From Branchiostoma floridae (Eukaryota > Chordata > Leptocardii > Amphioxiformes > Branchiostomatidae): a stretch of 64,000 nucleotides of DNA. Shown here in pieces: positions 16,081 to 52,197 of this stretch. Positions within the stretch are counted from its first letter, which is position 1. Each line of letters begins with the position of its first letter. The stretch is taken from NCBI RefSeq assembly GCF_000003815.2, contig NC_049995.1:13292062-13356061 (forward strand), in the 5' to 3' direction. Both the position numbers and the translations under genes were made by a program. Below the pieces are notes generated by a model, which had not been told where the DNA came from, made no database searches, and saw only the letters and a program-made list of their open reading frames with translations.

Positions 16081-16910
16081 ATGGATTTTTTGCCTTGGAC
16101 ATCGGGGCAACGACAGAAACGAGTTTTGTGCTCGTTGGCATTCCCAGTTGTTTTGATCCTTCTATTCCCTGGTGGAGGTAAGCAGCAATTTTCAGCCATT
16201 TGAGTCATGTGTTAACGCTTCTTTAACTTTCTAGCATTTTCTTCATCAGCATTTTAATAGTATCTGGCGTGACTTTGAGCGTTACTTGAAAAAAATATTT
16301 AAAAAAATTGCAAATCGTGAATATATTACTAATTTGATGATATTACTGATAATACTTTCAATTTGTCTAATATTATTAGAAACATTTAATTGGTAATGTT
16401 AACGTTAACATTAAGTTACCGCCTACATTAATCATAATTTGGTTAAGATACAAAATCACTTGACATATTAAAAGTGCAACTGATGTGATGAGAGCCAAAA
16501 TCATATACAACATACATTTTCTCAGAGCAATGTAGATTATAGAAAGATCTTTATATGTTTTGCAGTACACTGTTCCGTCACTTCACCTGAGTTCACAGCA
16601 GCCCAGATTGGTCAGGACGTGACAGCTACATGGACCTACTCTCCTCCTGAGGGGAACCCTCCGTTGTTACTCATCAGAGCAGTGAAAGGAGCATCACAAC
16701 AAGTGTTTCAGCATTATGTGCAGACTGGAACAACGTTACTAGAACCAGTTTATGATGGTCGGGTTGAGGTTGTTGTAACAGACTCACAGGTAGACTGTAC
16801 ACTGAAAAACTTTACTGCCACTGATGAGGGATCTTACGAAGCTGAATTTACCTATAGTGGTACTGGAATATGGATTTCTGAAAACAGCTTCACATTTATT
16901 GCTGTCACTG
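16081..16910 (+). CDS. Gene A exons 1-2: signal peptide and V-like Ig domain
   Basis: Exon 1 (16081-16177) encodes a 32-residue leader with basic stretch QRQKR and core LAFPVVLILLFPGGG, ending at GTAAGC in phase 1. Exon 2 (16566-16910) encodes a V-like domain: TATWTYSPPEGN in the B-to-C strands and FTATDEGSYEAEFTYSG in E-to-F. Both canonical cysteines are missing (W and E/A at the corresponding places), although the D-x-G-x-Y signature is kept. The domain boundaries match the first domain of gene C. Confidence 0.8.
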
Positions 16911-19228
16911 GTGAGTAAGCAGTAAGGAATTGTAGGTCTCTTCAGAAGACTAAGATTTTGCAACATTAGTGGGATGAGGAGGTTTTTTTAAGGACACAAG
17001 GCTGTTCTAAATTCTCTTTCAGAATACATTGTGTGAATTATGTAGTGCTATATGAATCGCATTAAAGGTGTTGTGTATCTCTTAGCATATTGGTAATGTT
17101 ATATTCCGGATTCATTCATGTGCTTTATGGAAACCTTGTCAGCCATCAATAAACATCAAATGTTTAAAAAAACTGAGGAAAACATCATGAATTTTAATTC
17201 ATCCAGTTCGTAGGTCTGTTCAAAATTAGTGGAGAAGGGCACACTTTATTTGGGTTTTTCCATTTTACCTTTCAGTCCCACAGGTCTGTCTAAGACTTGC
17301 CCAAATCAGGGATGCGTATTTTAATTGGAGTGCTTTGAGTTAAAGCACCCCAATTAACTCTATTTGAGAAAACACGGTAGATTATTCTGTGCCAAAACAA
17401 CCCGCAAGTTGGGTACCATCAAAACATACTGTATTTCAATAGATTTCACCCTCCTTCAGGTGTTTTGCTGTGATTTCCGGTATTTAGGCTGACCGGACAA
17501 TAGCAGTTACTACTAAAGTAATGTGTTGTTCTTTCCCTAGAAAATCATTATAAATAGGGTGATAAGCCTCTTGGTGCTAACCACTTTATAAAAATAAACG
17601 ATTACCAAGATTTAAAAAAACACCCCCAGACACCATAGGAATAGCATATACTCTGTCACTTGTCACTTTCAGGATAATTTATGTTGCCACTTCCTCCAAT
17701 GTACGTTTTCGTATCATTTAAGGTAGGGTATTTTAGTGAGCATAAACATTCCTCATGATTTAAACCTTTCTTCCCTAACCCATCTATCAATAGTTATAGC
17801 TCCAGTGTGTCATCAGAACAGTCTCCCCTGTTTGATTCCTTTCTTTTATACATATCAATGTTAGTTCAGAATGATCAGTGGCTTCCATCATTTCTTCACA
17901 GTTCCCCCCGACCCCATCCTCACCATCAGCTTCTACACCACCAGCGTGTCGGAAGGACAGTCCGTCCCACTGACCTGCACGTCCACCCAGGGGAAACCTC
18001 CCTCCCAGGTCACGTGGTGGAAGGGTGATGTGGAGCAGCAACAAGCCGTCTACAACAGCACTCCTAATGCTAGTACTTACCAAGGAGACGCCATGAGTGT
18101 GCTGACTCTATCTGTCCAACCTGCCAACAACCAGGAGACGTACCAGTGTAGGGTCAGTCAGCTGGGGAAGGAGCTGGAGCGGCGGGATTTGCAGCTCAAT
18201 GTCAGATGTAAGTACAGTAAAAAACTGACCGAATAACGTTGCTTACTTTGACAGGTAACGTATTGCAACTGAGATTTTTTTATCATAGCTCTAACCCAAC
18301 ATGTACTGTACTGCAGTCATGACCGATCCCCCTGTCCTGACCGGCTACTCTAGCCCCATCTCCAGCGGAGGTTCCCTGAACCTGACTTGTACCTCGGGTA
18401 ACAGCTACCCTCCAGCCAACATCACATGGACCCGGGTGGGAGTGGGGACAGTGGCTGGAACTGACCAACCACAGACAGACGGACAACATGGCGGAAAAAT
18501 CACGTCACAACAGATCAGTCTTACCAACCTGCAGGCTCGGGACAACGGAGCTCAGTTCAGGTGTACAGCTTCAAACAGTTATCTGGGACAGAATTCCAGT
18601 CTGAGCAGCTCCGCTGTCTCGATGGATGTTAGATGTGAGTACAATTAGAAGTATGAACTTGTACATCATGTGGCTATATCATTATATCTAATGGTCGATA
18701 GTTCGAAAACATGCTTTAAGCATTGACTGTCTGCTACCCATAGTGTCTTGATCTTAGTTTTGAAACTTATTTGTCTCTAAAACGCTAATTCCCTTTCTAC
18801 TAGTTTACCTTGAAGGAATCAACATTACTGGCCACACCAATCCCGTGCCAAGCGGAGGTTCCCTGACCCTGACCTGTACCTCGGGTAACAGCAACCCTCC
18901 TGCCACCATCACATGGACCCGGGTGGGAGGGGTGTCACCAACTGGAACTGACCAACCACAGACAGATGGACAATATGGCGGGAAAATCACGTCACAACAG
19001 ATCAGTCTTACCAACCTGCAGGCTCGGGACAACGGAGCTCAGTTCAAGTGTACAGTCAATAACTCTGCTGTCAGCCAGAGTGAGGAGAAGACTGTTACTA
19101 TTGATGTACAATGTAAGTCATTGATCAACATTCTCTGATTCTAAAGCTTTATGATATAAGTATTGCAATAACAGAATTGTTATGTTGCAAAAGTTTTTTA
19201 TATGTTTAAACCTAATTGATCCTACGGG

Positions 19229-19270
<42 letters not shown>

Positions 19271-22200
19271 GTTTGTGTGTGTTTATGTATTTATATATTT
19301 AGATTTTTAGATATATACATGTAGTTGTCGTGTTTCATTTTAGATGCACCGGCCAACATCCAAGTGACCTGCAACCTCATTGGCCTGAGTGACCTGAGGG
19401 AGGGTGACACCCTTGTGTGTACCTGTACAGCTGATAGTAACCCAGCCGCCCAGTACAACTGGACAAAGGACAGCACAACTGGTCCCCTTCCTGCAGGTGC
19501 AGTAGTGAACGAAACAGCAGGGACTGTCACCTTCAGCACCCTAGACAGGGCACACAGCGGGGAGTATAGGTGTGCAGCTAACAACGGTATCAGTCCTGAG
19601 GCAACAAATAGCAGCATCACAGTAGATGTCAACTGTAAGTAGAAGTTTTACCTAAAACAATCTTTAGAGACTTTTTGTGCATTTTCCTAAATGACAATTG
19701 TTGCGAAGCTTGATTTGGCGTTACTATCGTCAATATCGGTTTTCCTGGTGCTTGTCAAATACACAAAATGTGAGAAGATAAAAGTTACATGTAAATCTTT
19801 GTCATGACCAACAGGTCCCTTGTGATTCTGCTTTTTAGTGTCTTTAAAGCTCAAATCTAGTGTCTTGATGTTGGAGTTGATCCCACCTAAATAATTATGT
19901 ACATGTAATGTAATGTACCCACCTCTTGTATACTTAACAGTTAAACACATCACACATTTTTTTGTCAAAACAGGCAATACTTCAACAGCTGCATGTATAA
20001 TGTTAAATGTAGAGCATAGAATATTTGATATTGTTCTGCTGTTCCTCAGACCCCACCAGTATCACCTTCATCACTCCCCCTGTGACTGTTGATGAGTATG
20101 ATGACGTCAACCTGACCTGTACAGCTGACAGCAATCCTGAACCTGAACCAGGCAGCTTCAGCTGGGCCTACATAGACGGTACAACTCTAGCGGGCACTGC
20201 AAGTGAGGATGGGTTCAGCTTTACCACAAACATTGCAGTCATCACTTACCAACAGGCGGGGACGTACACATGTACAGCTGGCAACGGGATTGGTGCTGCC
20301 GCTTCTGCAGGGACTAATGTTACTGTGGAATGTGAGTTTGCCATTTTTCCAAAGTAAATTCCATGCAGTTTATTTGAGATTTAAGCAGTTGATTTGCACA
20401 GAAATAAATTATTCTGAGTCATTTACTTAATTGGTAGTGCCTTATTATCATTCTCATCTCAGATTGCTTGAACAAGATTTCCTCATAAGCTCTTCTAAAT
20501 TTCAGACCCTCCCAAGTTCTACCCTTCCACTGGCCCCTACCCAGCAGCTGTTGGTGCAGACGTCTCCATGGAGTGTTCTGCCTTCGCTGTGCCCAACAAT
20601 ATCATCTTCAGCTGGTCCAAGAATGGAACAACTCTGACAAACTCCAGCCGACTCACCATCCAGTCTTCATGGGAAAAAGTGATCCTCACGATCAGCAATG
20701 TGACGGAAGGGGACTACGGGACGTACAACTGTACAGCAGACAATGCAAAAGGGCCAGCAACAACTACCAGAAATCTGTATAAAATAGGTAATTTTTAATA
20801 TTGCATAATACATAATTTACATGTACGTTAGATTCTACTGTTCACAATTTTTTATTGTTATTTTTTTTTAATTTATCTTATGTTTCGTATTAGATTAGTA
20901 TTTAGTTAAGTGGAGGAGGGCACTTTACAAACCTTTTAGGCTTCTCCCCTCCCTGGCACTTTTATTTACTTGTGGTATACTTGTTATTGTTAATAATATA
21001 TTATATTATATAGTATGATTATATTTGTTATTGTTTTTGCCATGTGCGAAATAGATAAACAACAAATATTTAATCGGATATATTTGAAAGCTTAAAAATA
21101 CTTTAGAGGGTCTTAATATCTTATTGTTATCAATGTTTTATGTATTTCTCCCAGGACCACCGAGCAGTCCCAGTGAATTCAGACTCTTGTCCAAGAATAC
21201 CAAGTTCGTTGTTAATATCACCTGGACAGCAGGTTCTCATGGCGAACTGAACACAACTCACACAGTACAGCTGAAAAAAGCAGGGACAGATCAGTGGGAA
21301 GTTGTGGGTAGCCTTGAACAAACTACAGCCCAGCAGCAGCAGCGTACGTTCAACATTGCACTCGACCTGAAGGCACAGCAGGCTGGGGACTATCAGATCA
21401 GAATAAATGCCAGGAACACACAGGGAGAGGCATGGTCTGAGTCTGTGGATCTGAAACTGGAAGGTACATGGAATACATGGAAAACATTTTGTGTCAACCT
21501 TTTATTTACAAGAGGAAAATATACAATGATCTTATCGAGTACGAGGGCTCTATTTTGTTTCTGCATTTTACATTATCATTGACTATAAAAGATGTCAATT
21601 TGAAAGCATTGTAACATTCGACGCGATCAAACTGCGATATAAAGTCAAGTTGGTTGTTTCTTACAGCAAGCCATCGCCTGTCTGGAAGGATGACAACGAA
21701 TGAAAACTGGGTGGAGGCCTTGAAAGACAGCGAGTCAACTGAATTCCGACTAAAGGCAGCTTTGTGGGAGAGAAATGTGAGTCAAAATGCTGAAACTTAA
21801 GAAAGTTTGTTATGTAGTTTTTGTTTTGCTCCTTCATTATTTGATTCTTTATTTTGTATCATTTTAAAAAGGCCTTTAAGAGTTGTCTCAATATTGAAAT
21901 AATGTTACATGTATCTCTGGTTTTGTTTTTCTTGTTGTCTATAATGGATATTTACATAATGTATACACTATACATATTGAGGATTCTGTCAACGTACAAT
22001 GTTCAAACATGTATTAGAAGCTAGTTAAATGATATATCATGCATGTTATCGGGGGAAGAACATAATAATGATGATGTTCTTTTTCTTTCTTTCAACAGTT
22101 GGACACAGTTTTTAGTTCTTTAATCGGATATGAGGGTGCGACCATAACACAGTTCAGGTAAGCCAGTAATCTTGCATTCACTTCTTTCTAGATTAGATCT

Positions 22201-25200
22201 TAAAACTTTCCTTAAAATATCATTGAATCTATGATGACCTGGGTCCCAATTCCGATTCACAGCCAGGGCAGTGTTGTAGGGGACTTTCAAGCAGTGGTGG
22301 CCGAGTCAGAAACACAGGCAGCTATAGAAGCTTTCGAGACACAAGTCAACGCAGGCAGTGTGGGCGATCTTACTGTGGTCAAGGAGAGCTCACAAATTTC
22401 TGTCACAAGGCCTCCTGGTAAGCTTAATGGTATTTTTCCACTTAACTAAAAGAGAAAGGAAGTAAAAAATATATATCTGATAGTTTTGAGGTTGGTCTTG
22501 TGTATAGAAATATATTCCTGCCATCGGTATGCTCATAATGTGTGCTTGTGTAGCATAATTATGTTTTTGTGACATTCATTCTGATGTTCAACTTTTCTTC
22601 TTTTGCAACCTTCATTATAAATCTTTTTAATTACCTCCTAAGTCATTGACTTTTTGTATTTGAATATTTTGATAATCATTGTAAACTATCATATCAATCA
22701 GTTTGCTTTTTTCATTCACATTTTGGCGTCCTGCATGTTTTTGATCACAGATTGTGGCAAGATTGTTCCAAACACTGATTTTAAAGTAAAAACAAAATGT
22801 CTACAACGGGTCATTGCCTTTGATGCACTTTACGTGTGAACACCTATGATCAAATTGTTATACTAAGTCGCCAAGCATTTTAGCTTGAGATCAATCTCAT
22901 CTTAGGATTATGAAGTAGATTTACTCTAAAGTATTTTTGAGAAACATGATAAGAAATAAAATAGGTCGGTGTCACGTCGGTGTGTTACGCCGAACGGCGG
23001 TTATACCGGCTATATAGATACGGATACAGATACGTTTTGACTCAGACTGCAATTTCCTTATTCTAAGCATTTGGACCCAATAGTCAATTCCATTTATATC
23101 CTTTTCCGTCAATAATAAATGTTGAACAGGAATACCTTTGCCATGGTGTGTTTTGGGAAATTACAAAGTGTGTCTGCGTCGTTGGCAGTATTTTCGTGTA
23201 ACCTGTGTTGAATCCTACACGGTCTGCTGCAAGTTTTAAAAAATGTGTCCTATGCAGGCTGCTACCATTGTCTTAACATTACGGTTTTTGTGTTCACGGA
23301 ATGTCTGCAAGCCAAAGTCTCTGATTACTCCCCTTCCCCCTCAATGGGCATGTTTTTCGGATTTTACTTCCTTGTCTTAATTTGACTCTGCGTTGCCTTG
23401 GGAGGTTGGTAGTATCTTAACACTTGTAATTATCGTCGTTACTTTTAACCCCGCAATACCGATTCGTGTCTTTGCCCTTGGGCCATGCTGAAATGATTTC
23501 CATTCTACTATTGTTCTGTATACAACACATCTATTTTGAAAAACATACAATAAAGATCTTTTGCACTGTCAATGCCACAAAAAATTGTTTGTTGTAACAA
23601 ACACAAGTATGATGTAAATGAGCTGATTTTCAGATTGCTGCTTTAGTATGCAGCTTTTTGTAACATAGTTTTCACCCATGTTTCGTACACCAGATGGAGG
23701 AGTTAACATCACTTCTACCACCATCATCATCATAGCTGCAGTATGTGGAGTTGTGGTTGCAGTTGTCGTTGTTTCTGTGTGCGTGTGCGTTTGTAGGAAG
23801 TCAGCAAATGGTGAGTGTGAAACATGCATTCATTTATTGAATTGTTCCGTCCACATCTCATTTTGTAATTCAAGATTATCAAACACTTTTAGAGGCACAT
23901 CACAAGAAGCACTGTATAAAAAAACGTAAAATTGCACTCACAAGTTTGCTCACTTTTTTGTTGGCATAAGATATTTACTTTGCTTTTCTTTTAGGCAAGA
24001 AAGGCGGAGCGCCTGAAGAAGGCCTAGGGTTGGTTTACTTATCTTTTATTTCTAATCAGCTGGGGAGCCAGAATGCCCCATTTCATGTTGGTTATGACGC
24101 CGTAACACGTGGAAAATCATTAAAATTACCGGTTATATGAATAGTTCAATAACAGATTGTTAATTGATAAGAAGAACGCTGCCTCAAAAGTACTTTCACC
24201 TCTGCCCAGAAAGTGGAATGAGTACACACATTGCAGGGGGTGGGGTGGCTACTTCTGTTTACTTTGGTTGTGCGTTTCTTTGTTCAAAGACAAAGGTTTA
24301 ATGTCTTAGAATACGGATAGATGATACGCGTGACCGTTTGCAGTCCATGTCGTAACAGGTGTTTGGGGGCCAAGTCCACTTACGAGAACCTGTCATATTC
24401 AACTTTCAGTAACATAATCAGTAAAATTTGTTAATATTCAAATACTTGGAACTGAAATACCCTTCATGTTAGAGTTAAAGGTTATATGTTGTTCAAAGTC
24501 AATGTTCAAATTTATTGAATATGTATAACATAGTATTGAATAAAGTATGAATGTGTTAGAAATGAATTTTTCTATGGTATTAATATGAATGAATATGATA
24601 CTAACTTTAATGACTCCACTGGTCCTAGGTGTATATGGTGTCAGAACGCCTGGTCCTTTGCGATAACCTGGTCCTTTGTACACTCTGCGTTTTTATTCGG
24701 TGGTTATAGCAAAGCACCAGGCGTTGACACCATATAAACCTCGGGCGGGTCATCATTCCTTAATTAGCTTAACTGTCAATTGTGTCATACATGTTACGTT
24801 GAAATCTTAATCGAAAATTATTTTAGAAGGTTAGAAATCCAGGTAATAAGAAAAGGTACACTGTCAACCTTGTCCATTCTATAAAGCAGCCGGCATATAA
24901 CTTTGAGATTTTATAATGAAACTCTGCATTTGCCGGTGCTATAGACTCACTTCTGCTGATAGACCAACGTCAATGAATGGCCTCACAAACCACGGGTTGG
25001 ACCAAAGCACGGAAAACATCCCCGGTGGGGAAGGTAAACACAACAGCTTGTTGTTGTATAGTTTTTTTGTTGTTCGTGCATCTAACGTAGGAATCTCAAA
25101 CCCTTGGGTATCGTTCGAGCTTACGTCCCTGTGCCCAACCCACCCTAGCAAATATAGAGGACGATGAAATCGGGGATCCCCTGTACCACAGTGCTGCATT

Positions 25201-40500: not shown

Positions 40501-41020
40501 TAAGAGTGAGTGAGTGAGTGAGTGAGTAAGTGAGTGAGTGAGTGAGTGAGTGAGTGAGAGTGTGTTGTGTCTTAAGTGATGGCAGTCATCCTTTTGCACA
40601 AACCTGCATCCGTGCAGCATCCGAGAAACGACACAACGTTGGGATGAGTCCCAAGTAGCTTCAGTACTGTCAACTCTTTGAAGAAAGCAGTCGAGGCAGT
40701 GGGACTCGACATACCTAAATATCAAATAATGATAGATGTAGATAATACCGCTAGAAGACATGAAATCTTAACTGAAACAAGAAATGTAGATTTCAGATCA
40801 ACTTGGTTCATTCAGACTGCTTTTTAATTTTGAACTACCTTTTACCTTTCAATTCCTTGACAGCCACAGTTTTCACACCTTCGCCTCCCGAAATTTTCCA
40901 GGCTTCGGCCTTGTAGACACTCCCGAACTCCCCTTGTCCAAGCTTCTCTTTGATGTTCAGTTGATTCCTCGGGAATTCTGAGGATGGTTTTACATCTTCA
41001 TAAGCGACATCTGGTGTATC
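37504..41020 (-). CDS. Gene C exons 19-26: protein tyrosine kinase domain and C-tail
   Basis: Eight exons of 175, 111, 182, 114, 112, 97, 100 and 75 nt. In order: [13 protein letters not shown] and VAVKELK (lobe N), [19 protein letters not shown] (helix C), [18 protein letters not shown] (hinge), [65 protein letters not shown] and [12 protein letters not shown]. The HRDLASRN loop and the P-I-R-W-M-A-P-E activation segment mark a tyrosine kinase of the FGFR/VEGFR/Tie-like group. The kinase insert is short. The tail DYINL fits a YxN (Grb2-type) site, and NTYTSL is a second tyrosine. Confidence 0.92.
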
Positions 41021-44000
41021 CTAATATATAAGTGGTAAAAAATAGTGATCAGAAAATGCGAAAACGAAGTACCAGTGATGATTATCATAAACCCATCATG
41101 AAAATTGTAGAATTACCTCCGTTTTACTGCTTGCCATCAAACCTTGATACGTGTGGTCGGACTGTGGAAACAGAAAGAGCTTTAGAAATTTAATAACTTT
41201 GTAAAACCTTTGTATTTTTTGAAATGCTGAATTATTGAAAGTAACTTTTTTTTAGCACGTGACTCTCAATCAAGACTTATACTTGAAAGTTCATTATATT
41301 GAGCATTTGTTTTCCAAGAAATTCTTCTAAGCAAAGTCAAGCACAATAAGGATATGACATATCAGATGTACCTTCTGTCTGCGAGGCATTCTCAGACTCT
41401 GATATCCGTCGTCCGAATTACCTGCCTTAAAAATACAATTAGCATGTTGTGACATTAAAAATCAGTAAATCATTTGTAGACACTAAGGGACTGTGCTGTA
41501 AAAGAGATGGTATACTTAAAGACTTCCTTCCATATAATCTATGTGTACTTTGCACTCTCAAAAAATTCTGAGTAATCGATGACTTACTACATTAGGTTCC
41601 AATTCCATGCTACTAGACGCTTTTTTCGGCGGCTTATCTGAAATATTCAGAATCAATGTTTCATACAAAATTGACAGAAGACGTAGGTGATTGCAACAAA
41701 ATGTACGTGATTAAACGATATTACATTCATGTTCATATGTGTCTCATAGGCTGACCAGTCAAGAACAGTTTTACGGGGAGCTTTTATTGAAAGGATAAGG
41801 AAAACTTGCAAAGATATGATAATTGTGTATCTCCGTAATCATTTACTCACCACGAGCGGCATGTCTTCTCATGAGGAATATGGCAACAACAACCACAGCT
41901 ATCAGCCCCACAACACCGACCACTGCGGCTATGATGATTATAGTGGTTGAAACTCCACCGCTCACTGTAAAGACAAAATAACTGTCAGTTTTTGCATGAG
42001 CTACTATTTTATATTATACGTTAATTGATAATTGATATAAATCTTCGGGTGGGGACCAAAGTAGAATCAAAGACAACACTATCAAGGGTTACAAAAAACA
42101 TTACCTACTTTTTATCATAAGCAACTATTTCCTGGCTACCAGATCAAGCAGGTAAGCATACAGCATATGTACAACAACTTTTTTATTCATTACAAGAATT
42201 AATAAACTAACCCGCAGGTTCAGCTTCACTTATCCTGCTGTTCTCAGGATCCACCGTGAATCCGTTCTCATCAGGATCCCCCAGCTGTCCATCTACCAGG
42301 GCATCAGTGTACGTAGCCTGGGCTGCAGCCGACTCAGACTGGGCCACAGTAGCCAGGAAATCAGCAAGGACGCTCCCGGACCTGGCAATAGAAGTTGGCA
42401 TTCAGTATCTATGACCGTCTCTTTGTGGGAACTAGGAAAGTTAAAAATCACAACTCTCCTTTAGTGACTGCAAACATAAATTTTAAATCTTCTTAAAGTA
42501 ATCATACTGAAAACTGACATAATTCTTGAAAACAAAGTCAAAAGGAAATACGTATTATTATCAAATAAATACAATGTATAGAAATTGTTAATGCCAACCT
42601 GCAGCCTGTCACATCTGCCTCTTCATAGCCTTTGTATTGCTCAAATATAGCTCCCAGCTAGAAATAGAAAAACATGAAGAGCAACTTACTGAGCAAATTA
42701 AAATCTTGCATCATTTTTTCAATGTGTGACATCATAATATATAATGTGCTTTGATCAAGCTACACAGTTACTAAGTTAAGTCAGCTAAACATTAGATTTA
42801 ACAGATGAAGGAGTTCAAAGTTTCACCTACATGTGTTACTATCCTGGTAGAAAGCTCTCCATCACAAATCCCCTTGGTGTACTCAATACTGGTGATGGCG
42901 AGGGTTCCATACAGGATCTGATTATCTGGGGAAGAAACATGACAACCAGAAACCTTAGCTTTTTTATATATATAATGACAAACACCTTGAAAGCATTGTA
43001 CATTGAAAATTTCATTGAATGTGTTAATCAATGGACCGACAACTGTGAGAATGTGTGTCATTGATTATTATGTTTATTATCATCATGATTATCGTTATGT
43101 GGAAAGAAGAAAATGAAAAGTCTTTTAACTCTAATATAGTACACACTAAAGTCTTCATTACAAATAGTTTGGAGAAATACCTATGAATAAATTACCCTTG
43201 GAGAAATAGTTACAACTGTTATTTTGATTCAATTTAATACAGTTTGGCCAAGATTGGTTAATTATACATGTAATGTACCTTCTATTTCAACCTGGATGAC
43301 GTTAGAGTACACAGCCCCCTGACTGTTCTCTGCCTGGATGCGGATCTCGTACTGTCCTTTTCCATGGAGTTTCACATTCTCAGTGAACTCAGGTCTGTTC
43401 TTGGAAGCTTCTTCGGGGACTTGTTTGACAATGACCCAGTCTGTAGTCTCCTCCAGCCTGTACTGTACGGTGTGATTTGTCTCCAGACCACCGTTAAACT
43501 CAGCTGTCCATGCCAGGGTGACATCCCCCGCAGCTGTCTTCTTGGTGTAGTCAAGGTTGGTGGAAGGTTCTGGTTTGGCTGGGTTTGAATAAACAGAAAA
43601 TTAGAATTTTGTTAGCTACACATGTACATCCACCCGATACTGACAGTTTATTGTAACTTGTAGTTATAACAAAAAATATCAATGAAGAAAAGAACGCAAA
43701 AAAGTATTAAACTTGTGGTTGCTTCTATTCAAGCAGTTTTGTTACAAAAAGATGAAAATGGTAAATATAGCCCAGTTGTTTACACTTACTTTCAGCCACA
43801 AGTTGGATGACTGTTGACCGTTGTCCATACCCATTGGTGGCGGTACATGTGTAGTCCCCATAGTGCTCCCTCTGCACATCTGCTATGTACAGTGTGCTGA
43901 CTCCGTCGTGACTGGTAGCATTACCACTGATGTCATATCCACCCTTCATCCATGTGTAGACTACCTGTGGTGGGTAGGCGAAGGCAGAACACTCCAGTGT

Positions 44001-47000
44001 GACCGGCTGGGACCTGCCTACAGCGTACCTGTCTCTGGTGTGGTTAAAGAGCGGGATAACTGGGGAAAACAATGAGAAAAGGAAAGAAATACCAGTAAAG
44101 AAATTATGGTATAGTATTATTAGTTTCATGTATGCATGTCCTCACAGGAATTTGATTCAAAACTACAAGTATTTATTTATGTATTTTGCATAATCAAAAA
44201 TCCTTACTTTGCACCTAAGTTGAAAAATCACTGTAATTAGACTATTAAAAAATTATTACAAACTTTAATCGTAGACAAATATTCAATGATAACAATGACG
44301 CACTTACAGTTGACATTAAGTATGAGGTCCTTGCTCACAGGTGACCCCGTTACACCATTATCAGCTGTACACCTGTAGATGCCTGCATTTTCATGACCAA
44401 CAGAACTGTTTGTGTAGGTGAGAGAGTTTCCTGTAGTCTGCTGCAGAAGAGTTTCTCCTGTCTCCACAAACATCCACGTCATGGAGGTGACGTCAGGGAC
44501 ACTGTCTGCCTCACAGGTCAGGCTGACGGACTGGGCCTCGTTCACGGGGTTGGGAGTAGCGGTCACTGTCAGCTCGGGGGGATCTGGGGGGAGAGAATAA
44601 TCTTTTTTTGGACTGCCATTCAATGTAGGTGAAATCTTGGTCCAACATTTAAAAGAACTAACATGTAAATAAAAAAATAGAAAATGCAATGATGAACTGT
44701 GATGAGAAGTCGTCAACCAAGAAAGAGCCTCGTGGCATCTGTAGGCTCTATAATACTGTTAACTCTAAGGGGGAAGAATCATTTTTTGTAGGACCTCTGT
44801 TGCAGTAGTCCAACATTTCAGTACCAACATGTAAGATTTAAAATAGAACATGCACTCAAGAACTGTGATGAGAAGTCAGCACCAAGAAAGGCTGCCTCTG
44901 TCAGGACATTTGTGGACAGGAACATACACGTAAATGTGTACAGTATGTAAATTAATCCAAACATTGTGTATTGAAGGAAACAATACAAGCCAGGAAAGAC
45001 AGTTCATGGATGTACTTATATGTAGGCAGTAATTACATAGATTGATGCACCATGCTTATCAGCATGAATGTTATACAGGACAGACACTTTTGCCTAGTCT
45101 TACAGTATTAGTTATCTACAGTCTACAAAAACAAGTGCTTTTAAAAAAGCTGGCATTTTGCCAATGTTTGCGTATGTGAACGTTTTTTTCTAGTTATTAG
45201 AATGTCATATAAATAGAACAGAGTAACTAAACCTGATATTGGCGCATGGAGAGATTCACATATGTGCCTGAACTGCAGCAGATCTAGACGCCACCTGTTA
45301 AAATTTGCGTGAACTGCAGCAAATTTCACTACATTTTTTTCATTGCCTGTTTTTGAGTGAGCTCTGTTGCCGGGCATTTTTAAGTTGTTTTTTTTTTATT
45401 TTTATTTCTACTCGGCAAAAAAACGAAGCGGTGAATCCGTTAACCAAAGAAATAAATTGGTGTAGCCAAATGGATGTAAAAATTAGTATTTTAATGGATG
45501 TAAAAAAGAAAGAAAAAAGTTGAAAAAAAATCTACCTCCCCGGATTCGAACCGGGTGCATTGGTTTAGAATGCGTAAACTTTACCACTGCGCTAGTGCGA
45601 ACATGTTCAAGAAATGCCTGTTTTAACAGGTATACAAATGTTTGGCATGGATTGAACAGGTCCGTTCATCTCAACATCACAACATCACAACGGCGACTAC
45701 ACTGGCCAGAAGGCATTTTGCGACTGCAAGTCGCAAAATGCAAAAAAAGTCAGAAACCAGGTCATGAAAGTTTCAAGACTTCAACTTCAGTCAATAAAGA
45801 AAAAGGCTGAGGTGACAGCTGATGACAAATAACACACCATGATTGTATACAAATGTGCAAGTATACATTGTACGTATGCCAGGACTTTGACTTCCCATTG
45901 ACCTTCATGGCAAGAAACAAATTAAAGGAATCTTAGAGGCAAATCATTAACATTGTGGACAATTTGTCAGAAGCTGATGACTCAGTTATTCACATAAGCA
46001 GGACATACTGTTCAGTCTTTTAGTATACTGTCAAGAAGTATAGTTTTGGGAGCATTTGTGCAGCGCGAAGACTCATGCGGCAGGCTTGTCTGTGTGCGGT
46101 AAACTGTCAAAGCTTACAATTCACGATGATCTCCAGCGTTACAGTTTTAGTCTCAGTTGTGCCCTTTTGATTGTTGAAAGCTTCACAGATGTAGGTTCCA
46201 GCATCACTGCGGTCTACTTGTTGGAAAGTCAAGACGTTGCTGTTCCATTCATCAGAACTGTTCTGTTTGGTCCACTTGTAACCAGCGGTAGGATTGGCAA
46301 CAGCTGAACACATGATGTTGACAGAGTCTCTCTCTAACACGGTCACAGGTGAGGTTTGGTTCAGTGTTGGTGTGTCCAGACCTGAGCAGGTTTGTAGATA
46401 CCGTTGATGTTATTATCATTTGATTATGACATTTACCTTAGAATTTCACATTTAAAGCTTACAATTTGACTCAAACTAAGACTGATGTTCGTCAAATAAC
46501 TTACACAGCACATCCACAGTGCTTGTAGCTGAGTCAGATTGTCCTATGCCGTTGTCAACTGTACAGGTATATGTGCCTGCGTCATTTCTATGGAGACTTG
46601 TGATCTGTGTAGTGTCGTTGTTGGCAATGCCTGCTGGGATAGGTCCTGGGTCCTTGCTCCATGTAAAGGTTGGTTCAGGGTTCCCGTCAGCCGTACATGT
46701 GAGAGTGAGAGGGTCTTCTTCTTTCTCTTCTGCAATACTCGGTGTGACGGTGGTTCCTGTTAGTTCATCTATTACAAGGTCCAACTTGTGAACGGTCTGG
46801 ATTATTAATATAGGCTAGGAGAGAAACACTCTTGGACTAATAAAAACTTTCCTGGTGTGGCTGAAAAATTCCTTATGTACATGTACATAACATGAAGTAT
46901 CACTTGGGCATCCAAGCTTATTGATATAGTTATAGACACAACAGAAATGTAGCAAACAGTTACTACATTATCAAAAATAATGTTTAACTAGATAAAGGTA

Positions 47001-50000
47001 CAAACACTCACAATTCACCACCAGTCCCACAGGACCACTCTCCTGTGACGTCCCCACCACGTTAGTAGCCGTGCACCTGTACTGTCCAGCCTCACCACGC
47101 TGTACATTGTTGATGGTCAGGGTTCCTCCACTGTGGGAGACAGACTGTCCATCTCGTGTCCAGGAGTAGGAGGTAGGAGCTGGAACGGAGCTGGCAGAGC
47201 TGCACGTCAGGGTCACAGTTTGGTCCTCTACTACTGGGTTTGGGGTGATCTCAACAGTTGGCTGGGACGGCTTGTCTGTGAAACACATGCCATGTATATC
47301 AAGGTAAGATTACGTTAAGGCCATAGAAAATAAATTTTATGGATGGCATCCCCTTAAGACCCCAAATCTTATGCAAAATTGCAAAATAATATTAGGAAAA
47401 AAGCAAAAAATGTAGTTGGCATATTACACTAAAGAGCTGAATTATAACTGTTGCATTTCCTTTTTTTGCAGTATTTATTGTTCATATGTATCAGTAATTT
47501 TAGTGTAATTACCTCCATGAAATGTAATGGAATGGAGGTTATATTTTACCCTGTGTTTGTGTGTGTGTGTGTCTGTGTGTGTTTAAACAAAATAACTCAA
47601 GAACGGTTGGGTGGATTGGTTTCATACTTGGTGTGTTGGTAGGGTGTGATGAAAGCTGGAAATGATTAGATTTTGGGTCCCCTAGTGGCTCCCCTTGGTA
47701 CTGCAGCGCAACTTCCGGTTTTGCTATTTTGGTGTTCTGAACATGCTATGGTCACGATTTTTGAGTATTAGATAGCTCTTGTGCTCAGGAAGAAGTGACA
47801 TAAGTTTGGGCCCCCTAGCGTCTAGTTTTGGGATAGCAGGGGCATTTTTGTCAAAAACTTCTGAAGAGGATAACTCAAGAAGGGAACAACGGATTTTCAT
47901 GATTTTTGATATGTAGGTACCTCAGACAATGTTGTACAAAATGAAATACTAATTATGCAAAATAGGAGCAAATTTGCATAATTAATGACAACATTGACAC
48001 AAAGCAGTTTTTTCTATGTATCTCTTGTTTTGGACGTGATATGGTCTTGAAATTTAGGTGGTAGATATCTTTTAGTGTCATGACAAAGTGAGGCAAGTTT
48101 CAGCCCCCTAACATTTAATTTGGGAACTGCAGGGGCGTTTTTGTCAAGACACTCCAAAGAGGATAACTGCAGAAAGGATTGACGGATTGGCATCATATTA
48201 GGCATTCGGGTACCTTAGGCAAAGATGTTCATAATGATATACGTGTTATGCAAATGAGGACTTAATTTGCATAATTAATGAGGAAATTGTATAATTCCAT
48301 TGTTTGCAATAACTGGACTTCAATAAATGTAACACATGTTAATTATAATAGGTGGAATATAAGCAGATACCAAATATGGTAATGAGGAACTTATTTGCAT
48401 AATTTAAGTAAAAATTGCAAAACCGCTTTATGATNNNNNNNNNNNNNNNNNNNNNNNNNNNNNNNNNNNNNNNNNNNNNNNNNNNNNNNNNNNNNNNNNN
48501 NNNNNNNNNNNNNNNNNNNNNNNNNNNNNNNNNNATTATGTTATGTCTTAGTCAATTGCATGAAATTTACGAAAGCTCTAAATTTTCATGGAGGTATGAG
48601 GTCGCCGAACTCTAGTTTTTAAACTCTTTCTGTCATGTCCGTTATGTGATATTGTATTGATGAGCAATGAATTTCATGTGTTGGTCCATAGGACAAATAA
48701 TTAACAGAACTGTCAAACTGTTGATCTAAATAACGTTAAAGTCAAAGCCTCAAGTTGACTTGTGTCTCTTAATAAAGCAGCATTAATGGAGAAGCAAGAA
48801 ATGATGTACAGTCATGTAGAAAACTTAAGAATCTCCATTAGAATCTTAATGCACAATACAAACCGTACTCACAATTCACGACCAGTCCCACAGGACCACT
48901 CTCCTGTGACGTCCCCACCACGTTAGTAGCCGTGCACCTGTACTGTCCAGCCTCACCACGCTGTACATTGTTGATGGTCAGAGTTCCTCCACTGTGGGAG
49001 ACAGACTGTCCATCTCGTGTCCAGGAGTAGGAGGTAGGAGCTGGAACGGAGCTGGCAGAGCTGCACGTCAGGGTCACAGTCTGGTCCTCTACTACTGGGT
49101 TTGGGGTGATGTCAACAGTTGGCTGGGACGGCTTGTCTGTGGAACATATGGAGAGGTCGGGCAAATTAGGATTGAACAGATGAAACCTTGCGAGCCTGTA
49201 GTGAAACAACCAAAAGCATATATTGTAGTGATTGGGTCACAAAATTTATTGCAGGGCAGGTAAAAATAAAGGACTGGAATAAAATCAGAGGACCTACATA
49301 TTCATTGATTAGAAATGTAAGGTAGTTGCATGGTGGCCACTCATACAAAACTGATCGATGTGTATATACATAGAAGTCATGTGCTGAATGACAAAGTACA
49401 GTACACTTACACTGCACTGTGACGACAGTGTTTGCTGTCCCAGTTCCAGTGCTGCCATCATGGAAAGTGTTCGTTGCTGTACACACGTACGTGCCAGCTG
49501 CTGTCCGCTGTATGTTTGGGATGGCCAGCTGTGCTGTAGAGGAGACAGCTGTGGTGCTGCCCTGTTTCTTCCACTCCACACTGGCAGCAGGCCTGGCAGA
49601 CACAGTACACTCCACAGTCAGGGTGTCATCTTCATTCACAGTGTCCTCAGATGGGGCTGATACCTCAGGGGCATCTGGGTAGAAAAAAACAACATCATGA
49701 AACCACGTCGGCCTTAACGTTGCATTCTATGCCATTGGTTACGGTTTCGACAGTAAAAATACTAAATGCAATAGATTGATGCTTTTATGAAATGATATTT
49801 ACTGAAATATGGTATTAGAAGGTCTCTTAGTGGGTTCATAACAATGATACAATTGTCAAAAGGAAAAAAATACATATTATTAAACCTTTCTGATATCCGA
49901 AACTTAAAGGTTACACCTAACAATATATTTTACAACTTAAGAAGTTTTGCTGATACTTTCAGCTTACATTCCACACTGAGAACAGTTGATGCCGTATCAG

Positions 50001-52197
50001 GTGTGGTTCCCATATTGTTGGTCACCTCACAGGTGTAGGTTATGTCATGTAGGTTTCTTGGGGCATTGCTGATGGCGAGAACACCGTTATTCTCGCTGTA
50101 GCGGTCCTCTGTACCGGGGTCAATGACCCTGGTGCCTTCCTTCCATGTGTAGCTGAAGGTGTCAGGGGTTCCCTCAGCAGGACAGCTGATTGTGGCGGAC
50201 TCGCCTTCTTTCACACGGGTTGTACCGGGTGGGGGTGTGGTGATGCTGGCTGGGACTGGACAGAAGGGAAACATCAGATTCTGATTCACTTCATCTTCAT
50301 TTTCATTTTACTCAAACATCATTCATACCACATTAGTCATGCTGTACGGAGGTTTGGGCTATTAGTAAATTATTAATTTGCCTTATCAGTTACATATTAA
50401 GCTTTATGCTTGAGACGAAAACAATGCGTAATCACTATTATAACAGATATTAAAATGTTGTTTTTTTATTGCATAAAAAGATATCTCGCAATGCCAGGTT
50501 CAGAACTAACCGTCACTTCATTATATCTGGCGTCAGAGTATGCTTTGATTTGTAAGATTCGATATTCAATAACACCAGAAGGGTGTATATTTGTACGCGT
50601 GTCTGTGTTAGTTGAGCAATGCTTACCATGGTACAATATCATATCAGGAACCGTTGTACAGTTCAGTGTCATCATATTGGTATTGATGCTAATCAGGCTT
50701 TTACCATGCATTTTTTCACACCGACTTTCTATTGAGGGAAGAAATGATTGTCTACTTTGAAGTAGTTGAATATTTTAGATGTAGACGGAGATTGAAAACT
50801 GTGCCTTACAGCAATATCAGGTACAATTTCAGATGAAGGTCGTTGACATTTCTATGCAGTGATTGGACTTGAGTGGCCATTATCAACTGAAAAAAGGAAA
50901 AGAACTCCAGTCACCTGCCAGTATGAGCTGTGCACTTTCCTCAGGTGAAGCGCCACCGTCAACTAAAAGAGAGCACCTGTAGACCCCAACATCTGCAGAC
51001 GTGACCCCGGTCAGCTGAAGACTGGCCTCACCATTGGTGCTTGTCCCTGTTGTTGAAGCTCGGCTGGCATAAACAGAGTAGATGTAGGGCCCACTTCTGT
51101 CTATTTCCAAAATGTCATCCACTGGGTCTACACTTGTTTTTCTCCATACTAATCTAATGAAGGATTCCCCAGATCCCAGTGTATATCGCCATGGAAACAA
51201 GACTGTTCCTCCTTCAACCACATAGTAGGTCGGCTCGTTGTTGGTGATGGTTGCTCCTGATGATAGGAGGTGATTAGTCTATTCACTCATTTATTCGTAT
51301 TTTCGTACTTTCAATATATCATGTTTTAGCCTAGGGAAAGGATAGTAGATACGCACTTTCACTGTCCCGAGCACGCATGTGCAGTGACAGGAATTGTGGA
51401 TAATATGCCAAAGGATAAGACACAGACTTGTAAACAGTACTCGCCATGACCATTGTCTCGATTTGCATAACATTATTCAGGCGTACTTTTTTATGTCTCA
51501 GGGACTTTGACACATCACCCATAAATTCGTTGCTGCACATTGAGTGTTCACCAGCTTCCCTGGCACTCTATGGTGTCACATCGAACAACCAATCACTCCA
51601 CACCTGTACGATCTAACTCTGAGGCTATCTCGTAAAGACGCCACTATCATATGTAATGACTACATGTTACATACAATCAGATCGCGATGATTCGGGCTAA
51701 CGTTGGCACAGCAGTATAGTGGTAGGTAAAAAGTAGGTGACCAGATAAGTTAAGAAATTGCATGTCTATGAGTAATGTAATCTGCTGATTAAGACAACCT
51801 TGTTCTCGAACATAACACAACTCACCAGAAATGATTGTTGAACACATCGATCTAGAGATTTATACCGGGCATTTAAGGCTATTGAGAACAATAATTTACT
51901 ATAATAGTTAGCCAGTCATGACTGCACGGCTTCAAAGGCACAATAATATTTCTAAGGTTTATCTTTGGTCTGCCTCAGGTAAAACAGATTATGATTGCAA
52001 CAACTTATACCTTTACCACACAATGCCGGGCGGAGAACTTACCTTGATGTGCACATCACAACATTACGTGCGTGACCCTACAATTATAACGTTACCATAC
52101 AAAATTTGAACATGCTTTACAGTCAGGGTCGGTACATACCTAACACGGTCGTTTGCTCACTCAGAAAGAATATGCTTAAAAATATCAGTATGAACAT
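37504..52197 (-). CDS. Gene C: Ig/FN3/SEA receptor tyrosine kinase
   Basis: Exons from the 5' end: 52197-52140, 51256-50915, 50255-49968, 49674-49411, 49136-48873, 47275-47012, 46768-46505, 46381-46118, 44583-44308, 44059-43790, 43578-43279, 42925-42831, 42657-42599, 42381-42212, 41964-41851, 41637-41588, 41425-41372, 41161-41117, 41020-40846, 40714-40604, 40283-40102, 38874-38761, 38637-38526, 38411-38315, 38006-37907, 37578-37504. Sum 4407 nt, 1468 codons plus TAA, phase continuous throughout. Order: leader, V-like Ig, eight Ig, FN3, SEA, TM (~1060-1097), juxtamembrane tyrosines, kinase (~1170-1440), short tail. Kinase residues are intact: G-loop GQGEFGSV, Lys ~1202, HRD Asp ~1308, DFG Asp ~1326. 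Ligand-driven dimerisation and autophosphorylation are expected from the family. The 100-N gap in one intron could hide further Ig exons. Confidence 0.85.
38875..40101. repeat. Kinase intron with two CATGGAGGTA-family fragments
   Basis: Fragments at about 38945-39070 (ACTAGAGTTCGG then CTCATACCTCCATGAAA) and about 39770-40050 (ending ACATTTCATGGAGGTAA) belong to the same repeat as at 8.4 kb. The DNA between them holds no feature that I can name. Confidence 0.5.
40440..40563. repeat. (GAGT)n microsatellite in a kinase intron
   Basis: An interrupted GAGT/GTGA tract next to the hinge-region exon. A shorter related tract lies at 57818-57893 in the equivalent intron of gene D, so it predates or was copied with the gene duplication. 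Confidence 0.85.
41117..41964 (-). CDS. Gene C exons 15-18: transmembrane helix and juxtamembrane tyrosine segment
   Basis: Exon 41964-41851 is the helix ([19 protein letters not shown] onward, stop-transfer RRHAARG). The small exons 41637-41588 ([17 protein letters not shown]), 41425-41372 ([18 protein letters not shown]) and 41161-41117 ([15 protein letters not shown]) follow. The last two are symmetric phase-0 exons of 54 and 45 nt, and together give YQSL and YQGL separated by 11 residues, with acidic residues before the first. That resembles an ITAM with a long spacer. Both exons could be skipped in frame. Confidence 0.75.
42212..43578 (-). CDS. Gene C exons 11-14: FN3 and SEA domains
   Basis: Exon 43578-43279 (300 nt) is FN3, with [10 protein letters not shown] and [14 protein letters not shown]. 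The next three exons (95, 59, 170 nt; phases 1-0, 0-2, 2-1) form a SEA domain: [15 protein letters not shown], then [17 protein letters not shown], then [16 protein letters not shown] with the G-S-V-x-x-D-F core. Phases and the 59-nt middle exon are the same as in gene A. Confidence 0.85.
43790..50255 (-). CDS. Gene C exons 3-10: eight C2-type Ig domains
   Basis: Eight exons of 288, 264, 264, 264, 264, 264, 276 and 270 nt, all phase 1 to 1, one domain each. Each shows a B-strand Cys (ATISCPA, LTVECTV, VTLTCSS twice, [28 protein letters not shown]), a C-strand Trp and a D/A-x-G-x-Y-x-C F strand. Five consecutive exons have the same length of 264 nt, evidence of tandem exon duplication. Two of them (49136-48873 and 47275-47012) are almost identical. 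Exon 46768-46505 was placed at the acceptor TTGTAATAG because this keeps phase. Confidence 0.9.
44584..46117. other. Gene C intron with a tRNA-like sequence
   Basis: A 1.5-kb intron between Ig exons. Besides the tRNA-like segment at 45532-45603, a local duplication is visible: about 44585-44715 and 44770-44885 share blocks such as GTAGTCCAACATTT, AACATGTAA and GAACTGTGATGAGAAGTC. Confidence 0.5.
45532..45603 (-). tRNA. tRNA-like sequence, probably a pseudogene or SINE head
   Basis: Read on the minus strand there is an A box TAGCGCAGTGG, a 5-bp anticodon stem GCATT/AATGC with a 7-base loop, and a T arm with B box GGTTCGAATCC and a perfect CCCGG/CCGGG stem. The two acceptor strands do not pair and the base after the anticodon is C, so it is unlikely to be a working tRNA. 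The A-rich and T-rich flanks suit a tRNA-derived SINE remnant. Confidence 0.5.
47512..48615. repeat. CATGGAGGTA-family element broken by an assembly gap
   Basis: It begins TACCTCCATGAAATGTAATG, includes TAACTCAAGAACGGTTGGGT and several CAAAAACTTC/CAAGACACTCC blocks, and ends TTTTCATGGAGGTATGAGGT with the GCCGAACTCTAG end motif. This is the longest copy in the window. It contains 100 N at 48435-48534. Confidence 0.65.
48435..48534. other. Assembly gap of 100 N
   Basis: A run of exactly 100 N is a conventional placeholder of unknown true length. It lies between the two nearly identical Ig exons of gene C and inside a dispersed repeat, so the number of Ig exons here is uncertain. Confidence 0.98.
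50915..51256 (-). CDS. Gene C exon 2: V-like Ig domain lacking the B-strand cysteine
   Basis: 342 nt, phase 1 to 1. Key landmarks are [16 protein letters not shown] in place of the usual B-strand Cys, FIRLVWRKT for the C strand, [20 protein letters not shown] for E and F strands. One cysteine only. The FPW triplet recurs in the Ig exon of gene B. Confidence 0.85.
52140..52197 (-). CDS. Gene C exon 1: signal peptide
   Basis: A 19-codon leader, [19 protein letters not shown], ends at a donor GTATGTAC in phase 1, matching the V-like exon at 51256. It was preferred over a hydrophobic frame starting at 51473, whose donor leaves the wrong phase. Confidence 0.7.

What the first reader, a model, noticed from the sequence alone, without database searches (positions are those of the whole stretch)
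16081..52197. Convergent sister receptors: one with an ITIM tail, one with a tyrosine kinase tail
Genes A and C share the same ectodomain order (leader, noncanonical V-like Ig, Ig array, FN3, three-exon SEA, TM), the same SEA exon phases and an identical 59-nt middle SEA exon. They differ only inside the cell: gene A has many ITIM/ITSM-type tyrosines, gene C a receptor tyrosine kinase. Vertebrate paired receptors usually couple activation through ITAM adaptors. Here the activating partner would carry its own kinase, and could even phosphorylate the inhibitory tail. The pairing is inferred from architecture and adjacency.
Basis: partly seen in the sequence, partly recalled or inferred. Interest (0 to 1): 0.88.

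Follow-up and report, generated by a model that had tools for sequence, protein, structure and literature searches.

The report
Amphioxus inhibitory and kinase receptor siblings
In amphioxus, a family of cell-surface receptors with largely interchangeable outer parts carries either a braking (ITIM) tail or a built-in tyrosine kinase that itself ends in an activation (ITAM-type) motif, which looks like an unusual invertebrate form of the paired on/off receptors of vertebrate immune cells.

Summary
Two complete genes lie tail to tail. Gene A (+, 23 exons, 1,346 aa): leader-V-6 Ig-FN3-SEA-TM, 13 tail tyrosines (5 ITIM, 2 ITSM). Gene C (-, 26 exons, 1,468 aa): leader-V-8 Ig-FN3-SEA-TM-complete tyrosine kinase. 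New: C ends in [16 protein letters not shown], textbook ITAM spacing; both half-sites are invariant in 6 of 6 genes that keep this end. A and C are not sisters: SEA domains lie in different clades (p-AU 5e-41), V domains show no clear relation, the 'identical' 59-nt exon shares only length (28/59 nt). But the broader idea gains support. Gene A's Ig1-SEA is 76% identical to a B. floridae kinase receptor, against 60% to the one ITIM receptor whose tail it shares (83%). Two Ig1-3 classes each hold one ITIM-tailed and at least one kinase-tailed receptor. Best reading: a paired-receptor family, seen so far only in Branchiostoma, whose activating members are ITAM-bearing receptor kinases. Against it: gene A's outermost V domain matched no kinase-tailed relative, a close ITIM/kinase pair within one genome is not shown, and relatives are automatic gene models. 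Signalling, ligand and immune role are inferred.

The parts
16081..16177 (+). Gene A exon 1: leader, phase 0-1
16566..16910 (+). Gene A V-like Ig exon (no canonical B/F-strand cysteines; predicted IgV fold, mean pLDDT 73.7)
   Evidence: (V-set 18.5 bits, under the cut-off of 26)
17902..20787 (+). Gene A six Ig exons (17902-18207, 18317-18634, 18804-19112, 19344-19634, 20050-20331, 20506-20787), all phase 1-1
21155..21463 (+). Gene A FN3 exon
   Evidence: fn3 19.8 bits, cut-off 25
21667..22417 (+). Gene A SEA domain in three exons (21667-21776, 22099-22157, 22263-22417), GSVVGDF at the expected self-cleavage site (site recalled)
   Evidence: (SEA 22.3 bits, cut-off 26.4)
23694..23810 (+). Gene A transmembrane exon
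23995..25033 (+). Gene A juxtamembrane exons 23995-24028 and 24945-25033 (least certain part of the model: weak donor at 24028)
25518..27758 (+). Gene A three repeated 129-nt tail exons (25518-25646, 26251-26379, 27630-27758): NxYxDV plus VQYSTV / VQYATV / AQYATV
29646..30416 (+). Gene A three further tail exons (29646-29714 TVYAQV, 29876-29953 SEYATI, 30336-30416 AQYSEV), found by matching P0006
34433..35100 (+). Gene A last two exons (34433-34542 VIYTEV; 34888-35100 LIYAEL, RYEDAP, TEYASI), stop 35098-35100
52140..52197 (-). Gene C leader exon
50915..51256 (-). Gene C V-like Ig exon (B-strand Cys missing, F-strand Cys present; predicted Ig fold, mean pLDDT 62.6)
   Evidence: (V-set 24.5 bits, cut-off 26)
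43790..50255 (-). Gene C eight Ig exons (50255-49968, 49674-49411, 49136-48873, 47275-47012, 46768-46505, 46381-46118, 44583-44308, 44059-43790)
43279..43578 (-). Gene C FN3 exon
   Evidence: fn3 23.9 bits, cut-off 25
42212..42925 (-). Gene C SEA domain in three exons (42925-42831, 42657-42599, 42381-42212), GSVLADF
   Evidence: SEA 19.5 bits, cut-off 26.4; not listed in the whole-protein scan
41851..41964 (-). Gene C transmembrane exon
41117..41637 (-). Gene C juxtamembrane exons (41637-41588, 41425-41372 with DDGYQSL, 41161-41117 with TYQGL)
37907..41020 (-). Gene C tyrosine kinase domain, seven exons, catalytic motifs intact
37504..37578 (-). Gene C last exon: [28 protein letters not shown] spacing YxxLx7YxxL
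55883..58518 (-). Gene D: nine exons of a second receptor kinase of the family (TYQGL, kinase, ITAM end); no ectodomain exons found upstream in the window

Best explanation
Genes A and C are two members of a family of Ig-FN3-SEA receptors, seen so far only in Branchiostoma, that works as a paired inhibitory/activating system. One arm (gene A) carries a tandem of ITIM/ITSM exons that, once phosphorylated, would recruit SH2 phosphatases. The other arm (genes C, D and relatives) is a receptor tyrosine kinase that carries its own activation module: YxxL tyrosines next to the membrane and a C-terminal ITAM. Ligand-driven clustering would let the kinase phosphorylate its own YxxL/ITAM tyrosines (docking tandem-SH2 kinases and adaptors) and, when co-engaged, the ITIM tail of the sister receptor, which then switches the signal off. 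Exchange of ectodomain exons between the two tail types, possible because the ectodomain and TM exons meet at phase-1 introns, would keep their outer parts alike. Shown by sequence: gene structures, motifs, their conservation, and discordance between tail and ectodomain kinship. Inferred: phosphorylation, SH2 binding, shared ligands, immune role. A and C themselves are probably not partners; A's partner would be a kinase member with an A-like ectodomain outside this window.
For: Open 23- and 26-exon models. Intact kinase; purifying selection on the kinase half between C and D, dN 0.060 against dS 0.418. ITAM half-sites invariant in 6 of 6 genes with this exon (C and D in the window, three of B. 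belcheri, one of B. lanceolatum); one gene has YIDL, so a Grb2-type YxN site is not what is strictly kept. Chance of an ITAM in shuffled C-terminal exons 0.8%. ITIM tail conserved in P0006, 131/158 over the last four exons. Discordance: A Ig1-SEA 612/802 to kinase receptor P0005 against 475/797 to ITIM receptor P0006. SEA tree pairs A with kinase receptor P0005 (98/92) and ITIM receptor P0006 with kinase receptor P0003 (86/98); ITIM-only clade rejected, p-AU 1.2e-4. Ig1-3 tree: two classes at 100/100, each with an ITIM tail and kinase tails; ITIM clade rejected, p-AU 3e-8. Identity of A to P0005 is 90-95% in the six 40-residue windows covering residues 801-940 and falls to 21-32% in the tail.
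Against: The outermost V domain of gene A, the likeliest ligand-binding part, matched only P0006 and P0012 (38% and 37%) and none of the kinase-tailed relatives; most of those models lack an N-terminus, but P0002 has one. The relatives are automatic gene predictions; a fused model could fake an A-type ectodomain on a kinase tail. A close ITIM/kinase pair within one genome is not shown: the window's species is unknown, P0006 comes from a hybrid record whose parental genome is not given, and A and C in one genome are 33% identical. In Ig1-3 gene A's nearest row is P0007 (81%; 602/798 over Ig1-SEA), a truncated model whose tail is unknown and might be ITIM. Only two ITIM-tailed members are known; a tail-only search found none among 2,445 candidates of about 343-1,090 residues, but it used my first tail model, without three exons. 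No expression, ligand, phosphorylation or cell-type evidence. The ITAM was noticed after looking, so its shuffle value is only indicative.
Confidence: 0.48

Rival explanations
1. Independent receptors: a lineage-specific growth-factor or adhesion receptor kinase family and an ITIM-tailed adhesion receptor that share ectodomain exons merely through duplication and exon shuffling, with no paired signalling. The YxxL/ITAM-like tyrosines would be ordinary docking sites (for example Grb2-type).
For: Kinase domain is closest to FGFR and RET in the PDB, apart from one EGFR-labelled chain; sources call members RET, FGFR2-like, nephrin-like. YINL also fits a Grb2 site in 5 of 6 genes. A and C are distant, and gene A's V domain is not matched by kinase-tailed relatives.
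Against: ITAM spacing and both YxxL are invariant while the Asn is not; both Ig1-3 classes carry both tails; SEA domains of ITIM receptors pair with those of kinase receptors, not with each other.
Confidence: 0.35
2. The shared ectodomains of kinase-tailed and ITIM-tailed proteins in the databases are gene-prediction artefacts made by fusing neighbouring genes in a cluster.
For: Relatives seem to sit several to a contig (equal contig lengths) and the SEA-TM junctions seen here are phase 1; some models are truncated (P0001, P0007, P0012) or end inside the kinase (P0005, P0011).
Against: A-type SEA followed by a kinase tail occurs in four separate records (P0003, P0005, P0008, P0011). In the window no kinase exons were found on gene A's strand, and A's own tail is matched in the same order by P0006.
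Confidence: 0.12
3. One reading: A and C are sister genes that form the receptor pair.
For: Same domain order, same SEA exon phases, similar TM (z 9.7), FN3 (z 17.6) and SEA (z 13.0); tail-to-tail neighbours.
Against: SEA sisterhood rejected (p-AU 5e-41); V z 2.0; Ig1-SEA 240/723 identical; no DNA match between the loci.
Confidence: 0.05

Closest known systems
Vertebrate paired receptors (KIR, LILR, SIRP, FcRL, CD300, CEACAM) (recalled; related titles in the listings)
   Same: Clustered Ig receptors; inhibitory ITIM tail and activating members with similar ectodomains.
   Different: Activating vertebrate members signal through separate ITAM adaptors or ITAM tails and borrow cytosolic kinases (recalled); here the activating member is itself a receptor tyrosine kinase and also holds an ITAM-type motif, and the ectodomain ends in a SEA domain.
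Botryllus fester / fester co-receptor (FcoR) family (PMC12065747, passages read)
   Same: Invertebrate chordate multigene family with V-type Ig and long tails bearing ITIM, hemITAM and YxxI/L/V motifs; some loci swap ITIM and hemITAM by splicing. The same passages mention ITAM and ITIM on candidate allorecognition genes of Hydractinia.
   Different: FcoRs have a sushi domain and, in the passages seen, no kinase; pairing there is receptor plus co-receptor.
Amphioxus ITIM receptor BbLcLRR with BbLck (PMC8211107, passages read)
   Same: Reports amphioxus ITIM-type tyrosines (DDYATV, HDYSEV); BbLcLRR associated with SHIP1 and, to a lesser extent, SHP1/2.
   Different: LRR receptor, tested in Jurkat T cells, no kinase sister.
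Ig-domain receptor tyrosine kinases: FGFR and RET kinase domains; sponge Geodia Ig-RTK (one passage in PMC12018476)
   Same: Receptor kinase, for FGFR and Geodia with Ig ectodomain; relatives of gene C are annotated RET or FGFR2-like.
   Different: No V-Ig-FN3-SEA architecture, no C-terminal ITAM and no ITIM-tailed sibling that I know of (recalled).
SIRP-alpha as a brake on receptor tyrosine kinases (recalled, no call)
   Same: ITIM Ig receptor phosphorylated by receptor kinases, recruits SHP phosphatases; its tail also has a TEYASI-type site.
   Different: SIRP and the kinases it brakes do not share ectodomains.

Membership tests
Paired inhibitory/activating receptors | Family members with opposite tails and closely similar ectodomains | tested here: met
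   A to P0005 612/802 (ITIM vs kinase); P0006 to P0003 329/401 over Ig5-SEA; trees. Gene A's V domain is an exception.
Paired inhibitory/activating receptors | Such a close pair within one genome | tested here: inconclusive
   A with C 240/723; species of the window and parental genome of P0006 unknown; own genome not answered (ten calls)
Paired inhibitory/activating receptors | Inhibitory tail with ITIMs | tested here: met
   5 ITIM, 2 ITSM; 0 of 20,000 shuffles reach 5 ITIM; P0006 has 4 ITIM and 2 ITSM
Paired inhibitory/activating receptors | Activating member with ITAM or ITAM adaptor | tested here: met
   YxxLx7YxxL in 6 of 6 genes with the last exon; by sequence motif only
Paired inhibitory/activating receptors | Opposite signalling on the same cell | not testable with these tools
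   needs cells
Receptor tyrosine kinases | Signal peptide, TM, complete catalytic kinase domain | tested here: met
   PF07714 profile positions 1-258 of 258; [15 protein letters not shown]; leader and TM judged by eye
FGFR or RET family | Family-type ectodomain (FGFR: three Ig; RET: cadherin-like and Cys-rich; recalled) | tested here: not met
   V-8 Ig-FN3-SEA ectodomain; only the kinase domain resembles FGFR/RET
SEA domain proteins | SEA domain with G-S-V self-cleavage motif before TM | tested here: inconclusive
   Motif in the 13 proteins with a SEA region, of 15 looked at (pattern drawn from these proteins); Pfam SEA 22.3 and 19.5 bits, under the cut-off of 26.4

The most novel reading that the evidence does not exclude
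A one-molecule activating immune receptor: a receptor tyrosine kinase that contains its own ITAM, matched by ITIM-tailed siblings with exchangeable ectodomains, so that the kinase is both the trigger and the enzyme that arms the brake. It would be a second design for balanced activating/inhibitory recognition, found in the sister lineage of vertebrates plus tunicates.
Probability: 0.33. Interest if true: 0.9.

Novelty: new variant of a known kind. Interest (0 to 1): 0.72.

Why it matters
Paired receptors are thought of as an ITIM receptor against a receptor that borrows ITAM adaptors and cytosolic Src/Syk kinases. Here the activating sibling appears to carry kinase and ITAM in one chain. If functional, it gives a simple testable model for how balanced recognition began in chordates, and it names precise genes, tyrosines and species in which to test it.

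Tried and rejected
Rejected: A and C as sisters. Rejected: 'identical' 59-nt exon (28/59). My first gene A model (1,270 aa) missed three tail exons; corrected after P0006 matched them. A first P0006-to-window script part printed nothing (end). That search found none of 2,445 candidates at E 0.001. I first labelled P0006/P0012 'belcheri' and P0007/P0011 'japonicum' (row names); the records are hybrids (floridae x belcheri, floridae x japonicum) and do not say which parent, so I withdrew the claim that SEA domains group by species, and on rereading also weighed the unmatched V domain. Rows dropped: P0012 and gene D have no SEA region and are not in the SEA tree; C, P0001, P0004, P0011 were left out of the Ig1-3 tree, and gene D has no such part. 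The nearest PDB row for the kinase is listed as EGFR (9p9u); I did not look into it. The V-domain models are modest (pLDDT 62.6 and 73.7) and match generic IgV domains, so they do not suggest a ligand. The amphioxus tyrosine-kinase survey (D'Aniello 2008) is not held, so I cannot say whether it lists these genes. No paper describing such a family was seen in the listings; subscription papers are mostly absent from that library. Passages only were read of PMC12065747, PMC8211107, PMC8662651, PMC11999971 and PMC12018476.
Full report
What is there. I rebuilt both genes by hand from splice sites and reading frames. Gene A on the + strand has 23 exons from 16081 to 35100 and gives 1,346 residues without a stop. 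Gene C on the - strand has 26 exons from 52197 to 37504 and gives 1,468 residues without a stop. Gene A reads leader, V-like Ig, six Ig, FN3, three-exon SEA, TM, long tail. Gene C reads leader, V-like Ig, eight Ig, FN3, three-exon SEA, TM, kinase. The SEA exon phases are 1-0, 0-2, 2-1 in both. Pfam supports Ig domains and the kinase strongly (PF07714 E 2.8e-91). SEA, FN3 and V-set matches are below the curated cut-offs but sit in the right places.

The tail of gene A. It holds 13 tyrosines, 12 of them with V, L or I at +3: five ITIMs (VQYSTV, VQYATV, SEYATI, VIYTEV, LIYAEL), two ITSM-type (TVYAQV, TEYASI), two AxYxxV, three NxYxDV and one other. None of 20,000 shuffles of the tail reached five ITIMs, and none reached twelve YxxV/L/I. 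Six of the tail exons are symmetric 1-1 cassettes. Three of them (29646-30416) I found only through P0006, one at 96% over 26 residues. The two exons just after TM are the least certain part of the model.

The tail of gene C. The kinase is complete, with [12 protein letters not shown] and DFG; among the 60 PDB rows shown of 829 it is closest to FGFR and RET, apart from one EGFR-labelled chain at the top. The last exon, not mentioned in the finding, reads [24 protein letters not shown], that is YxxL-x7-YxxL with an acidic residue before it, the ITAM pattern (motif definition recalled). Shuffling this exon gives an ITAM in 0.8% of cases (noticed after looking). Near the membrane there are DDGYQSL and TYQGL. 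The two YxxL of the last exon are invariant in 6 of 6 genes that reach the end (C, D, P0002, P0003, P0004, P0008; P0010 taken as an isoform of P0008; P0005 and P0011 end before it), whereas the Asn of a possible Grb2 site is Asp in one of the six. GYQSL is kept in C and in all 7 kinase-tailed relatives; 5 of 7 genes fit DGYxxL, counting P0008 and P0010 as one gene, with gene D's exon not found. A second kinase half, gene D (58518-55883), has the same end; C and D differ with dN 0.060 and dS 0.418 over 1,008 nt.

Relatives. Two searches gave 12 distinct proteins, all named as Branchiostoma: seven kinase-tailed (P0002, P0003, P0004, P0005, P0008, P0010, P0011), one ITIM-tailed (P0006, LOC144907751 of a B. 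floridae x B. belcheri hybrid record), one with a short tail without such motifs (P0009) and three truncated (P0001, P0007, P0012). A third search with the ITIM tail of my first model found nothing in 2,445 candidates of about 343 to 1,090 residues. The window's own species, and the parent genome of the hybrid records, could not be fixed.

Are A and C sisters? No. In a SEA tree of 13 rows, C falls with P0001, P0002 and P0004 (100/100) and A with the others; forcing A with C is rejected (p-AU 5e-41). A and C are 240/723 identical over Ig1-SEA, their V domains show no clear relation (z 2.0), and their DNA does not match. The shared middle exon is equal in length only, 28/59. So the named pair is not a pair by descent.

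Is there a family with both tails on like ectodomains? By sequence, yes, with one gap. Gene A's Ig1-SEA is 612/802 identical to the B. floridae kinase receptor P0005, 602/798 to the truncated P0007 (tail unknown) and 475/797 to the ITIM receptor P0006, while its last four tail exons match P0006 at 131/158. In the SEA tree A pairs with P0005 (98/92) and the ITIM receptor P0006 with the B. belcheri kinase receptor P0003 (86/98); an ITIM clade is rejected (p-AU 1.2e-4). For Ig1-3, a tree of 10 rows shows two classes (100/100): A with kinase receptors P0002, P0003, P0005 and with P0007, and P0006 with kinase receptor P0008 (and P0009, P0010, P0012); an ITIM clade is again rejected (p-AU 3e-8). A's nearest row there is P0007, 81%. 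Against P0005, gene A is 90-95% identical in the six 40-residue windows covering residues 801-940, 87% in the next, and 21-32% in the tail. So outer parts have moved between tails, or been homogenised. The gap: gene A's V domain matched only P0006 and P0012 (38% and 37%) and none of the kinase-tailed relatives; most of these models lack their N-terminus, but P0002 has one.

How it may work (inference). Clustering of a kinase member would phosphorylate its ITAM and membrane-near YxxL sites and recruit SH2 kinases and adaptors. If an ITIM member with a like ectodomain is drawn into the same cluster, the kinase, or an Src-type kinase, would phosphorylate the ITIMs, which recruit phosphatases and end the signal. 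That amphioxus has such an ITIM pathway is supported by work on BbLck and BbLcLRR, tested in Jurkat cells (PMC8211107, passages). Invertebrate chordate families with ITIM and hemITAM tails exist in Botryllus, in the passages seen without a kinase in the receptor (PMC12065747, passages).

Limits. The relatives are automatic gene models. The window's genome could not be searched, so a close ITIM/kinase pair in one genome is not shown. No cDNA, ligand or cell data. The library holds few subscription papers, so novelty in print is only as good as the searches named in Tried and rejected.

Noticed in passing
window 55883-58518 (-): Gene D: kinase half of a further family member with intact frame and ITAM end. 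Retroelement frames start about 650 bases upstream of its first found exon, and tblastn with the family set found no ectodomain exon from there to the window end.
   Followed up: partly
window 59166-61307 (+) and 61304-64000 (-): Long retroelement frames: a gag-like frame with SCAN, zinc knuckle, aspartyl protease and an RRM match, and a reverse transcriptase frame on the other strand.
   Followed up: no
window 8995-9345 (-): Isolated V-like Ig exon with FPW at the B strand and IVWRK, like the gene C V domain; may belong to another receptor gene in the locus.
   Followed up: partly
window 25089-25145 (+): Stretch 63% alike to a P0006 tail segment (19 residues) that runs into an in-frame stop: a decayed exon or a short-tail isoform of gene A.
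   Followed up: partly
window 49136-48873 and 47275-47012 (-): Two gene C Ig exons are 260/264 nt identical, with a 100-base run of N between them: a recent exon duplication or an assembly artefact.
   Followed up: no
P0009 (B. lanceolatum): Ectodomain nearly identical to kinase receptor P0008 in Ig1-3 but with a third, short tail lacking ITIM or ITAM motifs.
   Followed up: partly
P0008 and P0010 (B. lanceolatum): Apparent isoforms that differ, among other stretches, by the TYQGL exon type (absent from P0008, present in P0010), suggesting splicing of a membrane-near tyrosine.
   Followed up: no
gene C and gene D kinase exons: DNA identity varies sharply by exon (77% to 96%), which may reflect gene conversion among kinase tails.
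   Followed up: no
P0002 and P0007, first 130-150 residues: Their N-terminal domains resemble each other to the eye but scored no match to the V domain of A or C: perhaps a further type of outermost domain in the family.
   Followed up: no
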